Source: Desulfonatronum lacustre DSM 10312
GTDB taxonomy: Bacteria; Desulfobacterota; Desulfovibrionia; Desulfovibrionales; Desulfonatronaceae
Reading direction: 5' to 3'
Length of the DNA stretch: 64,000 nucleotides
Assembly: GCF_000519265.1 (NCBI RefSeq)
Contig: NZ_KI912608.1
Location: 3,401,421 to 3,465,420, forward strand
Shown here: positions 6,815 through 62,180 of the stretch, in pieces
Numbering within the stretch: the first letter of the stretch is position 1
Layout of the letters: each line of letters opens with the position of its first letter
Translations under genes and position numbers: made by a program
Notes under the pieces: model-generated
What the model saw: the letters and a program-made list of their open reading frames with translations, nothing else
Databases searched by the model: none
What the model was told of the DNA's origin: nothing

Positions 6815-6824
6815 TCAATATCTG

Positions 6825-6997
6825 GTATCTACTCAGCATATTTTGTGTCCGTTCTTGCTCTGGCAATCGGGGTCGGAGTCGGTATCGGAGTCGAAATCGG
6901 AACAGGAAGAATTGAGAACGCATCCCAGCGTTTTCGATCCCGATCCCGATTCCGACCCCGGCAACGGCAACGCCATTACTCTGTGCTGAGTAGTTAC
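6825..6997 (+). mobile_element. Element B, copy 1: 173-bp MITE-like element with 8-bp target duplication
   Basis: Non-coding element bounded by 13-bp inverted repeats GTATCTACTCAGC (6825-6837) and GCTGAGTAGTTAC (6985-6997). It is flanked by an exact 8-bp direct repeat AATATCTG (6817-6824 and 6998-7005). Inside are two hairpin arms of G-R-N-R-T-C hexamers (about 6866-6900 and 6933-6962) around a loop containing CATCCCAGCG. It ends 26 nt before the hicB-like start codon, so the promoter of that pair must lie in or before it. No transposase is encoded. Other copies are at 42889, 53354 (inverted) and a fragment at 26187. Confidence 0.85.
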
Positions 6998-7022
6998 AAT
7001 ATCTGGGGAACAGGAGAGCGTT

Positions 7023-23005: not shown

Positions 23006-23066
23006 GCGATACCTCCGCGGCGCATCGAAATCGCAGGTTCCAATCGCGCGGCTGAGCAATTACGTG

Positions 23067-26045: not shown

Positions 26046-26373
26046 GGGCAATCTCCTTGAGAGGTGAAATACGAACAGGATTGTTCGGGTACAAAACCCG
26101 CGAACCATGAACCCCCTTGTTCGATTTTGCACATGCTCCTCGCCGAACGGCGCGATTGGGAAGGTCAGGGAACGGGAGACCATAAACCTACCGATCCCGA
26201 CTCCGACCCCGACAACGGCATTACTCTATGCTGAATAGTTATAGCTTATTTTGATACAAGAATATCTCTCTCGTCCGTGGATAGCATGCTGGGCAATCAC
26301 CATGCCGTAATGATGAATTTGCCTCGCCAGGCCTCTCTTCCAGTCCGTTCGTTTGTGGTGTACACGCCATACC
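26046..26373. other. Intergenic region between DUF485 and the ABC-F gene
   Basis: A divergent intergenic stretch of 328 bp. It holds the element B fragment (26187-26242) and AT-rich sequence after it that may include a promoter for the ABC-F gene. I see no further gene or clear operator. Confidence 0.6.
26187..26242 (+). mobile_element. Element B, truncated copy
   Basis: Right end only: hexamer arm (CCGATCCCGACTCCGACCCC), ACAACGGCATTACTCT and terminal repeat GCTGAATAGTTAT (26230-26242). The left arm and left terminal repeat are absent, so no target duplication can be judged. Confidence 0.75.
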
Positions 26374-36267: not shown

Positions 36268-36453
36268 TTCAAAGGGAACCCCCAGGGTGGGCCAGCAACC
36301 ATCGAAATCGCTATCGAAATCGCTATCGAAATCGCTATCGAAATCGCTATCGAAATCGCTATCGAAATCGGAAAGTTTCCAGAAATCGATTTCGATCACG
36401 ATTTCGATTTCGATACCGATTCAGAGCCCCCGTAGTGCGAGAACAAATCTGTC
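36268..36453 (+). repeat. Element A, copy 1: hexamer-arm hairpin element
   Basis: About 185 bp. The left flank TTCAAAGGGAACCCCCAGGG is shared with copy 2. The left arm begins with exactly five copies of the 12-mer ATCGAAATCGCT (36301-36360). The right arm (36390-36420) is built of GATTTC-type hexamers complementary to the left arm. The right flank contains GAGAACAAATCTG, also shared. It lies in the 577-bp region upstream of the TraB gene, which otherwise shows no gene. Confidence 0.85.
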
Positions 36454-36573
36454 CTGCCGGCGCCGTGTCGCCCGCTTGCCCTCCAATCCGGCACGGTGTA
36501 GACAATTCCATTTTTTGCCGTGCTCAAAATGAACTGCTGCCCGGCTTCATCCCTCTTTCCAGAACCAAATCGA

Positions 36574-37809
36574 ATGCACCCAGAACCATCTTCCCCGTCA
36601 TCTCCCTCTGTCGAAGCGGCCGAAACCGGTCAACAGGCCCAGGTCCTTGAACTTCCGTCCTGCGTGAAGCACGTCCGGGTGGGCGGGAAGGACGTGTATC
36701 TCGTGGGCACGGCCCATGTGTCCAAGCAGAGCGTTGAGGACGTCCGGACCACGGTGGAGATGGTTCATCCGGACACCATCTGCGTGGAACTGTGCCCGTC
36801 CCGGCATCGGGCTTTGATAGACCGGGACGGCTGGCGCAAGATGGACATCATGCGGGTGATCCGGGAGCGCAAGACGCCGTTTCTGCTGGCCCAACTGGTC
36901 CTTTCCTCGTTCTACCGCAAGCTGGGCGACCAACTGGGCATCCAGCCCGGAGCGGACATGGCCGAGGGCGTGCGCTTGGCCAAGGAGACCGAGGCCCATC
37001 TGGTCCTGGCGGACCGGGAGGTGGAGATCACCTTGAAACGGACTTGGCGGCATCTGGGCTTTCTGGAAAAGTTCAAGATGGTCGGGCAGTTGCTGATGGG
37101 CCTGATCTTTGCCGGCAAAATCGACGACGGCGTTGTCGAATCCCTGAAGCAGAAGGACCAGATGGAAATCCTGATGGACGCCTTTGCGGACGAATTCCCC
37201 CAGGTCAAGCGCCGGCTCATCGACGAGCGCGACCTGTTCCTGGCCCAGAAGATCCGCGAGGCCCCAGGCCAGACCGTGGTCGCCGTGGTCGGGGCCGGGC
37301 ACATGGCCGGGATAGAAAACCACATCCACCAGGATACGGACCTCGGCCCCCTGACGGTCCTGCCGCCCAAGTCCAATATCGGCTCGTTCCTGAAGTGGGC
37401 CATTCCCATCGCCATCGTGGTCCTGATCGCCTGGGGATTTCTCAAGGAAGGCCAGGCCCACGCCATGGAATCGGCCATCATCTGGGTCGCCCTGAACAGC
37501 GTTCTTGCCGGGCTGGGCGCGGTGCTGGCCTGGGCCCATCCGTTGACCGTACTCACGGCCATGGTCGCCTCGCCGTTCACCAGCCTGAATCCGATGATCG
37601 CCGCCGGATTCGTGGCCGGATTCGTCCAGGCCCTGATTCGGCGGCCCACCGTGGCGGACCTGGAAGACCTGCCCCAGGCCATCACCTCCCTGAAAGGCTT
37701 CTGGACCAACCCCTTGTGCCGGATTCTGCTGGTGGTGGCCCTGGTCAACCTGGGCAGCTCCCTGGCGGCCTTCATCTCCGGCGGCTGGATCGCGGCCCGG
37801 ACATTTTGA
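36574..37809 (+). CDS. TraB/GumN-family membrane protein
   Basis: 411 residues. The cytoplasmic N-terminal half carries the TraB pattern (VYLVGTAHVSKQSVEDV, CVELCPSRH, VAVVGAGHMAGIENHI). The C-terminal half has about four membrane segments, e.g. WAIPIAIVVLIAWGFL. Family members were linked to pheromone shutdown in enterococci, but the biochemical function is unknown; the GTAHVS/GAGHM motifs resemble metalloprotease-like TIKI/EreA folds. Start ATG 36574 gives a Ser/Pro-rich leader. Followed by a strong terminator. Confidence 0.85.
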   Translation: MHPEPSSPSSPSVEAAETGQQAQVLELPSCVKHVRVGGKDVYLVGTAHVSKQSVEDVRTTVEMVHPDTICVELCPSRHRALIDRDGWRKMDIMRVIRERKTPFLLAQLVLSSFYRKLGDQLGIQPGADMAEGVRLAKETEAHLVLADREVEITLKRTWRHLGFLEKFKMVGQLLMGLIFAGKIDDGVVESLKQKDQMEILMDAFADEFPQVKRRLIDERDLFLAQKIREAPGQTVVAVVGAGHMAGIENHIHQDTDLGPLTVLPPKSNIGSFLKWAIPIAIVVLIAWGFLKEGQAHAMESAIIWVALNSVLAGLGAVLAWAHPLTVLTAMVASPFTSLNPMIAAGFVAGFVQALIRRPTVADLEDLPQAITSLKGFWTNPLCRILLVVALVNLGSSLAAFISGGWIAARTF

Positions 37810-37811
37810 AC

Positions 37812-37844
37812 AAAGGCCGCCACCCCGGCGGCCTTTTCGCTTTT
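37812..37844 (+). terminator. Rho-independent terminator after the TraB gene
   Basis: Stem AAAGGCCGCC / GGCGGCCTTTT with a 5-nt loop followed by TTTT-CGC-TTTT. Confidence 0.88.
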
Positions 37845-37930
37845 CCGCTCCCTTTCGACCCGGCACGTATCCAGTCCGGTCCGGACAATCATCTGCCCAG
37901 CCCACCGACATCCGCCGAACCCTCGCCAGG

Positions 37931-38086
37931 GCAATTTTGTTCTCGAGCTATGGGCGCTCTGGATCGGTATCGAAATCGAAATCGTGATCGAAATCGATTT
38001 CCGGCAATGTTCCGATTTCGATAGCGATTTCGATAGCGATTTCGATTTCGATGAGTTATGCTCCACCCAGGGTGTTCCCCCCTTGA
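37931..38086 (-). repeat. Element A, copy 2 (inverted)
   Basis: Inverted relative to copy 1. Reading the minus strand: TTCAAGGGGGGAACACCCTGG flank, two ATCGAAATCGCT-type 12-mers, GGAACATTGCC loop side, hexamer arm, then GAGAACAAAATTG. Flanks match copy 1 but the number of 12-mers differs (2 against 5). It lies upstream of the E1 alpha gene; 38087-38267 shows nothing else beyond a possible promoter. Confidence 0.85.
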
Positions 38087-40460: not shown

Positions 40461-42748
40461 ATGCGCATCAACCGACGGACCTTTTTGCACTACTCGACCC
40501 TGGTGGCCTCGTCCCTGGCCCTGAGCGGCCTGCCCCTCTACGCCTACAACCCCCAGTCCGGGGCCGGGCCACGGGACGGGGTGCGCCGCAGTTATTGCGG
40601 CCTGTGTCACCCGCGCTGCGGCACCCTGCTGCACATGAAGGACGGCAAGGTCTTCGAGGTCAGCGGGGACCCGGACCATCCGGTGACCCGTGGCCTGATC
40701 TGCGAGCGGGGGTTGCTCATGCCGGAGCATATCCATCACCCGGACCGGATAATTATCCGCTGAAGCGGGTCGGGGCCCGGGGCGAGGGGAAATGGGAGCG
40801 GATTTCCTGGGATCAGGCCCTGGACGAGGTGGCCGCCAGGCTGAGTCGGCTGCGTGACGCCCACGGGCCGGAAACCCTGGGCTTCACCCACGGCACCAGC
40901 CGGACCCATCACTGGGACTGCCGCCGGTTCTACAACCTGTTCGGCTCGCCCAACGTCTGCGGGGCGAACAACATCTGCATGTGCCCGTCCTACGCCACGG
41001 AGTTCGCCACCTACGGCGGCATGGCCCGGGGCAATGCCCGGCAGGCCAAGTGCCTGGTGGTCTGGGGCAAGGCCTCGGCCAACTCCTCGCCCATCCAGGC
41101 CTGGCCGGCCACCCAGCAGGCCAGGCGCAACGGGGCGACGATCATTGTGGTGGATCCCCGGGAGATCGAGGAAGTGGCCCTGGCGGACATGTGGCTGCAG
41201 ATCCGGCCGGGCACGGACCTGGCCCTGATGCTGGGCTGGATCCGGCTGATCATTGAAGAAGAGCTGTACGACGCGGACTTCGTAGCCCAGTGGACCGTGG
41301 GCTTCGACGAACTGCGGGAGGCGGTGCGGGAGTACACCCCGGAGAAGGTCAGCGGGATCACCTGGCTGCCCGTGGAGCAGATCACCGCAGCGGCCCGGAT
41401 CTACGCCACCTCCAAGCCGGCCCAGCTGCCCTATGCCTACGGCCTGGACAAGCAGGGCATCAATTCCACCCAGTGCGCCCGGGCCCGGGCCATCCTGCGG
41501 TCCATTACCGGCAACCTGGAGATCCCGGGCGGGGAAACCTTCGGCCAGACCCCGGAGGTGGCCCGGGTGCGCGGGGAATTCGACCTGGTGGCCGCCGAGG
41601 CCATCGGCCCGGAGCAGCGGGCCAAGCAGCTCGGAGCGGACACGTACCCCTTTTTCGGCTTCCCCGGCTGGGAGCGCAACCTGGCCAACAACCGGAAGCT
41701 GCCCAAGGGCCAGGTCAACCCGCCGTCCATGTACCGGACCTGCGTGGCCCACATTCGGGACGTGTTCCAGGCGGCGATCACCAAAAAGCCTTACCCGATC
41801 ACGGCCATGTTCTCCGTGGCCAGCAATCCGATGCTCTCCTTCCCGGACCCGAAAATGGTCTTCAACGCCCTGACCGCCCTGGAGCTGTACGTGGTCATGG
41901 AATACTACATGACCCCCTCCGCGGCCCTGGCGGACTATGTTTTCCCCTCGGCCACCACGGTGGAGCAGCCCGAACTGTGGGTCACCGGCGGGTTCTGCAT
42001 GGCCTGTCCTCCGGGCATCGAGCCGCTCTACGAACGCCGGGACACCTATCAGTTCTACCGCGGCCTGGGTCTGCGCCTGGGCCAGGAAAACGACTGGCCG
42101 TGGGAGAACCTGGAGCAGGCCTGCGACTTTCGTCTGGAGCCCACGGGGCTGACCTTCCGGGAGCTGACCGAGCAGTATGGTTTTTTCGGCACGCCCGAAT
42201 TCAAGCGCTACGAAACTTCAGGCTTCGGCACCCCGTCGGGCAAGGTGGAGCTGTATTCCAGCATCTTCGAGGAGTTGGGTTGCGAGCCACTGCCCACGTA
42301 CAAGGAGCCCCTCTGGAGTCCGGCCGGGAATTCGGATCTGGCCCGGGAGTTTCCGCTGATCCTGATCACCGGCAGCCGGTTCATGCCCATGTACCATTCC
42401 GAGCAGCGTCAGATCGCATCGGCCCGGAAGGTGAATCCGGATCCACTGGTCCTGCTGCACCCGGAAACAGCCCGGGAACTGGGCCTGGAGAACGATCAGT
42501 GGGTGCTCGTGACCTCGCCCAAGGGCAAAATCCGGATGCGCCTGCGCACCTCCACCCGCATTCATCCGCGAATGGCCGACGCGCAGCACGGCTGGTGGTT
42601 CCCGGAACGCAGGCAGGAGCTTCCGGAACTCTTCGGGGTCTACGAGTCCAACGCCAACATGCTCTGCCCGCTGGAACCGGAACATTGCAGCCCGGAAATC
42701 GGCTCCTGGCCGCATTCGGCGTTGTTGTGTCGGGTTGAGGCCGCGTAA
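40461..42748 (+). pseudogene. Tat-exported molybdopterin oxidoreductase, frameshifted
   Basis: DMSO-reductase-superfamily enzyme expected in the periplasm. The N-terminus has a Tat signal (INRRTFLHYSTLVASSLALS). A 4Fe-4S motif follows (YCGLCHPRCGT ... GLICERG), then Mo-bisMGD domains (GATIIVVDPRE, RSITGNLEIPGGETF, DYVFPSATTVEQPELW, SGKVELYS). The frame that starts at 40461 stops at 40761-40763. The remainder (to 42748) is one frame back, the switch being needed near 40752-40756 so that HPDRII joins YPLKRVGARGEGKWERISW. No classic slippery heptamer is seen. Either a real 1-nt loss or a sequence error; the rest (about 660 residues) is intact. A Cys in NNICMCPS may ligate Mo. Substrate unknown. 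Confidence 0.85.
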
Positions 42749-43085
42749 TACCAATTCTACTTCGGCAATGCGTTTTTCGCTTGAGAAAATGCAGTTATCG
42801 GGGTCGGTATCGGGATAGATACTGTTTGTTCGCCAATAATCCTAATTCGACCCCGATGCCGATGCCGAAAGAGAAGCTTTGAATGAGAGTATCTACTCAG
42901 CTCATTTTGCGTCCGTTCATGCTCCGGCAATCGGGGTCGGGGTCGGCGCTTCGCTATCGGAGTCGGAATCGAAACAGGAAGAAATCAGAACACATCCCAG
43001 CGTTTTCGATCCCGATCCCGATTCCGACTCCGACCTCGGAACCGGTATTACTCTATGCTGAATAGTTACGAATTAGAAATGGTAT
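42748..43085. mobile_element. Element C, copy 1, interrupted by element B
   Basis: Ends ATACCAATTCTA (42748-42759) and AGAAATGGTAT (43075-43085) are inverted repeats. Inside is a hexamer-arm hairpin (about 42796-42870) with the loop text GTTTGTTCGCCAATAATCC, which recurs inverted at 49579. The right part is split by element B copy 2. The left end abuts the stop codon of the molybdopterin gene. Confidence 0.75.
42889..43069 (+). mobile_element. Element B, copy 2 (181 bp), nested in element C
   Basis: Terminal repeats GTATCTACTCAGC (42889-42901) and GCTGAATAGTTAC (43057-43069). It is flanked by GAATGAGA (42881-42888) and GAATTAGA (43070-43077), a 7/8 match target duplication. Removing it plus one duplicate restores an element C end resembling the copy at 49579. 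Internal arms and the CATCCCAGCG text match copy 1. Confidence 0.85.
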
Positions 43086-43110
43086 AACGGGTCAATCCGT
43101 CCCAACGCCT

Positions 43111-61976: not shown

Positions 61977-62051
61977 GTGATGTTCCTCTGATTTGGGTTC
62001 ATGAGTGTGACGAATGGAGTCCTGGTTGCCGTTAGTATCTCTCGATATCAG

Positions 62052-62180
62052 TGTCCAAATCGCAATCGAAATCGCAATCGAAATCGGAGAGAAATACGCA
62101 CCACTACCGCATGTCCGCCGCCTTTGATGTTTCTTCTTTCGATTTCGATCACGATTTCGATTTCGATTTCGATTTGGACA
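62052..62180. repeat. Element A, copy 3, overlapping the 3' end of trpF
   Basis: 129 bp with ends TGTCCAAATCG (62052-62062) and CGATTTGGACA (62170-62180). Left arm has AATCGC/AATCGAA hexamers, right arm GATTTC hexamers, loop about 60 nt. Flanks differ from copies 1 and 2, so it shares arms rather than a full consensus. The right arm encodes the last residues of TrpF. Confidence 0.8.

What the first reader, a model, noticed from the sequence alone, without database searches (positions are those of the whole stretch)
6825..6997. New non-coding mobile element family (element B) with 13-bp TIRs and 8-bp target duplications
Three complete copies (6825-6997, 42889-43069, 53354-53520) and one fragment (26187-26242) share ends GTA(T/A)CTACTCAGC. 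The flanks show 8-bp duplications AATATCTG, GAATGAGA/GAATTAGA and AACGTGAA: two exact, one 7/8. The 8-bp duplication and GTA-type ends resemble IS66-like transposition, so a full-length IS with these ends may mobilise them in trans. The density (four in 64 kb) implies many genomic copies.
Basis: partly seen in the sequence, partly recalled or inferred. Interest (0 to 1): 0.75.

Follow-up and report, generated by a model that had tools for sequence, protein, structure and literature searches.

The report
Hairpin MITE family of IS66 type
The window carries three copies of a short non-coding jumping element (at least 77 full-length copies genome-wide) whose ends match those of a widespread bacterial transposon, IS66 of the single-gene ISBst12 type; no copy of that transposon is left in the host, so the parasites appear to have outlived their engine.

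Summary
The three copies, their 13-bp inverted ends and their 8-bp duplications are as described, and the genome (3.76 Mb, one contig) holds at least 77 full-length copies. Of these, 35 have perfect and 12 have 7/8 target duplications; other duplication lengths are essentially absent. Two insertions have precise empty sites in species of the same genus, and a third has a paralogous empty site inside the window. The element is non-coding, folds back strongly, and lies mostly between genes. The IS66 guess is right in kind and can be narrowed: GTAACTAYTCAGC is the end of a widespread 1.7-kb, single-ORF IS66 subgroup (ISBst12 group). Of 59 such elements, 45 carry it at both ends, 18 of those with 8-bp duplications. 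An active member is published (ISDge4). The window's genome has no IS66 transposase, but a congener keeps a decayed one that ends in exactly this terminus. Unrelated fold-back MITEs with the same ends and duplications occur in other genomes, one with 29 copies beside the intact IS. I file it as a MITE of the IS66/ISBst12 group: a new member of a known kind, apparently without a driver in this strain. Mobilisation was not tested experimentally.

The parts
6817..6824 (.). left copy of the 8-bp target duplication AATATCTG
6825..6997 (+). element B copy 1, 173 bp, MITE with 13-bp TIRs GTATCTACTCAGC (6825-6837) and GTAACTACTCAGC (6985-6997)
6998..7005 (.). right copy of the 8-bp target duplication AATATCTG
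42881..42888 (.). left target duplication GAATGAGA
42889..43069 (+). element B copy 2, 181 bp, TIRs at 42889-42901 and 43057-43069; nested in a copy of repeat element C
43070..43077 (.). right target duplication GAATTAGA (7/8)
49575..49605 (-). paralogous empty site: GCTTT-GCATTAGA-ATGGTATAACG in the uninterrupted element C copy, read on the - strand, matching the flanks of copy 2
53346..53353 (.). left target duplication AACGTGAA
53354..53520 (-). element B copy 3, 167 bp, inverted relative to copies 1 and 2; TIRs at 53354-53366 and 53508-53520
53521..53528 (.). right target duplication AACGTGAA
26187..26242 (+). element B fragment, right end only (end ATAACTATTCAGC)

Best explanation
Element B is a non-autonomous DNA transposon (MITE) of about 150-190 bp. 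Its 13-bp terminal inverted repeats (GTAWCTAYTCAGC) are the recognition ends of a single-ORF IS66-family transposase of the ISBst12 group. That transposase, supplied in trans, moved the element into staggered-cut target DNA, leaving an 8-bp duplication; the targets are A/T-rich and mostly intergenic. Between the ends lies a fold-back filled with NNTCGG hexamers whose number varies in 6-bp steps, and this interior encodes nothing. Shown here: the ends, the 8-bp duplications, precise empty sites, identity of the ends with those of the IS group, and presence of a decayed transposase with the same end in the genus. Inferred: that a transposase of this group did the mobilising, and that it was lost from (or never fixed in) this genome after the family had spread, leaving it immobile unless the transposase returns.
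For: Observation: 77 full-length copies, 35 with perfect and 12 with 7/8 8-bp duplications, and virtually no other duplication length. Empty sites: the copy at C1:403004 (CGTGAATC duplicated) is absent in congener G005, which reads a single CGTGAAAC; the copy at C1:1892770 (TTATCGGT duplicated) is absent in congener G001, which reads a single TCCTCGGT; paralogous empty site for copy 2. Ends: intact 475-aa transposase L176 (NCBIfam IS66 NF033517, 288 bits against a cut-off of 180; Pfam PF03050 and DUF6444) lies in a 1717-bp element with GTAACTATTCAGC at both ends. Of 59 relatives with scored ends across many phyla, 45 have GTAACTAYTCAGC within 1 mismatch at both ends, and 18 of those have a perfect 8-bp duplication; the search asked only for GTA, mutual similarity and duplication. 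In congener G001 a transposase C-terminus (62% identity) runs into the exact end GTAACTACTCAGC. Independent fold-back MITEs with these ends and mostly perfect 8-bp duplications occur in six more genomes that hold IS66 relatives, one with 29 copies beside the intact IS with GTAACTACTCAGC ends. ISDge4, ISBst12 group, 449-aa transposase, ends GTGACTACTCAGCA/GTAACTGCTCAGCA, made an 8-bp repeat CCTCGATG in an observed transposition (PMC12898284).
Against: The window's own genome has no IS66 transposase by family profile, by protein or by clade alignment, so the driver is inferred from congeners and ends only. Beyond 13-16 bp the element has no clear similarity to any IS found, so it is not shown to be an internal deletion of one. 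The left end is often GTAT, whereas the ISBst12-type elements found have GTAA. Thirty of the 77 copies lack a recognisable duplication (probably decay or recombination; their nearest-neighbour identity is lower, 89% against 95%).
Confidence: 0.9

Rival explanations
1. Element B is a MITE, but is mobilised by a transposase of another family that also makes 8-bp duplications.
For: No IS66 transposase is in the genome; several IS families make 8-bp duplications (established knowledge).
Against: Only the ISBst12-type IS66 elements were found with these exact 13-bp ends; DDE_Tnp_1 transposases (IS4/IS5-like) are absent too; a congener's IS66 remnant ends in the exact B terminus. Not every transposase family was searched in this genome.
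Confidence: 0.05
2. The repeat is chiefly a functional hairpin (terminator-like, REP-like or regulatory RNA) kept by selection, and transposition is incidental.
For: Strong fold-back (z -7 as DNA; interior z -3.4 to -6.5 as RNA); 68 of 79 sites intergenic.
Against: Precise 8-bp duplications and empty sites in related species show insertion, not conservation at orthologous places; copies stand in co-directional, convergent and divergent gaps alike; no Rfam match; fold-backs in other genomes with the same ends have unrelated sequence.
Confidence: 0.04
3. The copies spread by recombination or replication slippage of hexamer-rich hairpins, without a transposase.
For: The genome is unusually rich in NNTCGG hexamer hairpins (241 pattern matches against 0-43 in 40 relatives); copy lengths vary by 6 bp.
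Against: Fixed 13-bp ends, 8-bp duplications in 47 copies, and precise empty sites.
Confidence: 0.01

Closest known systems
IS66 family, ISBst12 group (single-ORF; ISDge4 of Deinococcus geothermalis is an active member, PMC12898284)
   Same: Terminal inverted repeats GTGACTACTCAGCA / GTAACTGCTCAGCA in ISDge4 against GTAWCTAYTCAGCACA here; 8-bp target duplication
   Different: ISDge4 carries a 449-aa transposase; element B carries none and shares only the ends
Classical three-gene IS66 elements (TnpA/TnpB/TnpC)
   Same: GTA start of the ends, 8-bp duplication, PF03050 transposase
   Different: Ends in the same order read GTAAGCG..., which do not match element B
Bacterial MITEs such as MITEPsy1 (Pseudomonas syringae, PMC3189936)
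   Same: Short non-coding element bounded by an IS's ends, target duplication, presumed mobilisation in trans
   Different: MITEPsy1 has 18-nt ends, 4-bp duplication, ISPsy2-like ends and few copies; element B has 13-bp IS66-type ends, at least 77 copies and no partner IS in the genome

Membership tests
MITE (non-autonomous DNA transposon) | terminal inverted repeats | tested here: met
   13 bp, up to 16 bp (GTAWCTACTCAGCACA), in 77 copies
MITE (non-autonomous DNA transposon) | target-site duplication | tested here: met
   8 bp exact in 35 copies, 7/8 in 12; shuffles give 0.4 and 0.4
MITE (non-autonomous DNA transposon) | precise insertion seen against an empty site | tested here: met
   two interspecies sites and one paralogous site
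MITE (non-autonomous DNA transposon) | no transposase or other gene inside | tested here: met
   longest start-to-stop ORF 69 aa; end-to-end open frames are put down to the hexamer repeats
MITE (non-autonomous DNA transposon) | mobilised in trans by an autonomous element with the same ends | not testable with these tools
   the autonomous partner is absent from this genome; end-matched partner present as a remnant in a congener and intact elsewhere
IS66 family, ISBst12 group (as source of the ends) | ends GTAACTAYTCAGC | tested here: met
   45 of 59 single-ORF IS66 elements carry them within 1 mismatch at both ends; same 13-mer in element B
IS66 family, ISBst12 group (as source of the ends) | 8-bp target duplication | tested here: met
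   21 of 59 IS loci with a perfect 8-bp duplication; ISDge4 likewise
IS66 family, ISBst12 group (as source of the ends) | encodes the IS66 DDE transposase | tested here: not met
   element B encodes nothing; it is a satellite of the group, not an IS66 element itself

The most novel reading that the evidence does not exclude
The ISBst12-type IS66 transposase readily adopts any DNA held between two 13-bp ends, provided it folds back on itself. Hairpin MITEs of unrelated sequence have therefore arisen many times across phyla, and the fold-back is part of the transposition mechanism rather than an accident.
Probability: 0.2. Interest if true: 0.6.

Novelty: new member of a known kind. Interest (0 to 1): 0.42.

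Why it matters
It ties an abundant unannotated repeat family, and similar ones in other genomes, to a named and poorly studied transposase group. It supplies a 13-bp end motif that finds both the group's IS elements and its MITEs. It also gives a clear case of MITEs persisting in large numbers where no transposase remains. The Bathymodiolus symbiont genome with 29 MITEs beside intact ISs offers a present-day model of the active stage. No held paper links ISBst12 with MITEs, though the held library is not the whole literature.

Tried and rejected
IS66 search in the own genome: none. IS4/IS5-type DDE_Tnp_1 search: none. Classical IS66 elements of the order: ends GTAAGCG, rejected as partner. B-like elements in genus g14 with only the left 64 bp alike looked at first like possible IS ends but proved to be MITE-like too. 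Rfam: no family matches anywhere in the window. Plasmid and phage records: no similar DNA. A profile HMM built from an imperfectly oriented alignment matched both strands of each copy and was not used for counts. The end-like site at 23051 is a chance match. One look-up with a placeholder accession was a wasted call.

Full report
Check of the observation. The three copies and the fragment are present at the stated coordinates with the stated ends and flanks. In the window the 13-bp end pattern at up to two mismatches occurs 8 times against 0.76 expected, and no shuffle reached 8. The window lies in a 3,761,451-base single-contig genome; there the pattern at up to one mismatch occurs 178 times, against 3 for its reversed control. 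Reading the stretches around these sites gave 77 distinct full-length copies, 149-239 bp long with most at 161-187 bp. Thirty-five have a perfect 8-bp flanking duplication and twelve a 7/8 one. Re-pairing left and right flanks at random gives 0.4 and 0.4. Exact duplications of 4, 5, 6, 7, 9, 10 or 11 bp occur in at most two copies each. Copies with a duplication are closer to their nearest relative (median 95%) than those without (89%), as expected if the latter are older or recombined.

Empty sites. Joined flanks of two insertions were searched in the eight genomes of the genus. At the copy at C1:403004 the filled site reads TTTTTGGAT-CGTGAATC-[B]-CGTGAATC-AAAACC, and congener G005 reads TTTTGGGAT-CGTGAAAC-AAAACC. 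At the copy at C1:1892770 the filled site reads GTCGT-TTATCGGT-[B]-TTATCGGT-TTGAATA, and congener G001 reads GTCGT-TCCTCGGT-TTGAATA. Inside the window, copy 2 interrupts a copy of another repeat (element C) whose uninterrupted sister at 49.6 kb reads GCTTT-GCATTAGA-ATGGTATAACG, against GCTTT-GAATGAGA-[B]-GAATTAGA-AATGGTATAACG. Insertion was therefore precise, and these insertions most likely postdate the divergence of the species.

Anatomy. The ends extend to about 16 bp (GTAWCTACTCAGCACA). The interior is a fold-back of NNTCGG hexamers with a GAACAGGAA...TTTTCGAT centre; as single-stranded DNA copy 1 folds 7 standard deviations below shuffles. Thirty-six of 77 lengths fall in one class modulo 6, consistent with gain and loss of hexamer units. 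No start-to-stop frame exceeds 69 aa; frames open end to end are a by-product of the repeats (interpretation mine). With a simple codon-based gene caller, 68 of 79 sites fall between genes, though about 91% of the window is called coding; the gaps are co-directional, convergent and divergent alike. The duplicated targets are A/T-rich, with A favoured at positions 1 and 2.

The driver. The genome has no IS66 transposase by Pfam profile, by tblastn with a related transposase or by an alignment of 14 clade members; DDE_Tnp_1 transposases are absent as well. In 297 genomes of the order, 68 have IS66 transposases. The classical ones start GTAAGCG. A divergent, single-ORF group has other ends: L155 GTAACTTCTCAATAGTTC and L161 GTAACCGCTCACAGGGTA, both with perfect 8-bp duplications, and L158 GTAACTATTCAGC/GTAACTATTCACC. 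L176, with an intact 475-aa transposase, has GTAACTATTCAGC at both ends of a 1717-bp element; NCBIfam and Pfam name it IS66. In congener G001, which also carries element B copies, a C-terminal remnant 62% identical to the L158 transposase runs directly into GCTGAGTAGTTAC, the exact right end of element B. G007 keeps a possible shorter remnant (weak, E 0.001).

The group at large. A scan of the species-genome collection with the L176 transposase gave 363 relatives, of which 80 were kept. Ends were sought only by the letters GTA, mutual similarity and duplication. Of 59 elements scored, 45 have GTAACTAYTCAGC within one mismatch at both ends, 21 have a perfect 8-bp duplication, and 18 have both; ten carry GTAACTACTCAGC exactly. 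A published active member, ISDge4 of the ISBst12 group, has ends GTGACTACTCAGCA and GTAACTGCTCAGCA and produced an 8-bp direct repeat on transposition (PMC12898284). That is nearly the same end and the same duplication length. The assignment of the L176 clade to the ISBst12 group rests on its single ORF, its ends and this paper, not on a tree.

Other MITEs with these ends. A paired-end pattern search in 35 genomes found 42 exact-ended copies in the own genome and further families elsewhere, with zero in all reversed controls. These include a second subfamily in this genus with a GGATTCCCGCCTTCGCGGGAATGACG interior, and unrelated families in two deltaproteobacterial MAGs, a Desulfocapsa MAG and Bathymodiolus methanotrophic symbionts. 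In the B. japonicus symbiont there are 29 MITE copies, and its intact ISs have the same GTAACTACTCAGC ends. Of the 15 loci L305-L319, 11 have perfect 8-bp duplications and two have 7/8. Their interiors are unrelated in sequence yet nearly all fold back beyond chance (interior z from -1.6 to -6.5 over all families tested).

Verdict. Element B is a MITE whose ends belong to the ISBst12 group of IS66. It works like any MITE: ends recognised in trans, staggered 8-bp target cut, insertion mostly between genes. Shown: ends, duplications, empty sites, group identity of the ends, remnant transposase in the genus. Inferred: actual trans-mobilisation, and loss of the transposase from this lineage. I found no held paper that describes ISBst12-group MITEs, or this end motif in a transposon other than ISDge4. 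As a kind it is known; the family, its link to ISBst12 and the recurrence of fold-back interiors appear to be new.

Noticed in passing
G000:C1:1179645-1179824, 1180016-1180180, 1651335-1651487, 2962849-2963020 (L067, L076): A second MITE subfamily with the same IS66-type ends but an interior built on CTGGATTCCCGCCTTCGCGGGAATGACG; also in congeners G001, G003 and G007, two of these three with perfect 8-bp duplications.
   Followed up: partly
G365 (Bathymodiolus japonicus methanotrophic symbiont; L260, L315): 29 copies of a 176-bp MITE beside intact ISBst12-type elements with the same GTAACTACTCAGC ends: a candidate active system.
   Followed up: partly
whole genome; window 36289-36418, 37963-38050, 49603-49703, 62041-62171: NNTCGG and ATCGAA hexamer hairpins of several kinds are very abundant here (241 matches of the NNTCGG pattern) compared with 40 relatives (0-43). 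Element B's interior is one of them; why they share this hexamer is unexplained.
   Followed up: partly
window 36289-36459 and 37924-38070: Inverted copies of another hexamer repeat flank the ORF at 36598-37911; a third, similar array lies at 62041-62171.
   Followed up: no
window 42733-43089 and 49566-49720: Repeat element C (ends near GTWATACCA) occurs twice; one copy is the target of a nested element B insertion.
   Followed up: partly
L102, L112, L123 (G033), L103, L113, L124 (G059), L104, L115 (G045): A related fold-back family in another family of the order shares the left 64 bp at about 81% identity, with ends GTAACTGTTCAGC/GTAACTGTTCACC.
   Followed up: partly
L181:1200-1500 (G001:C27): What looks like a remnant of another IS transposase lies immediately upstream of the IS66 remnant.
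   Followed up: no
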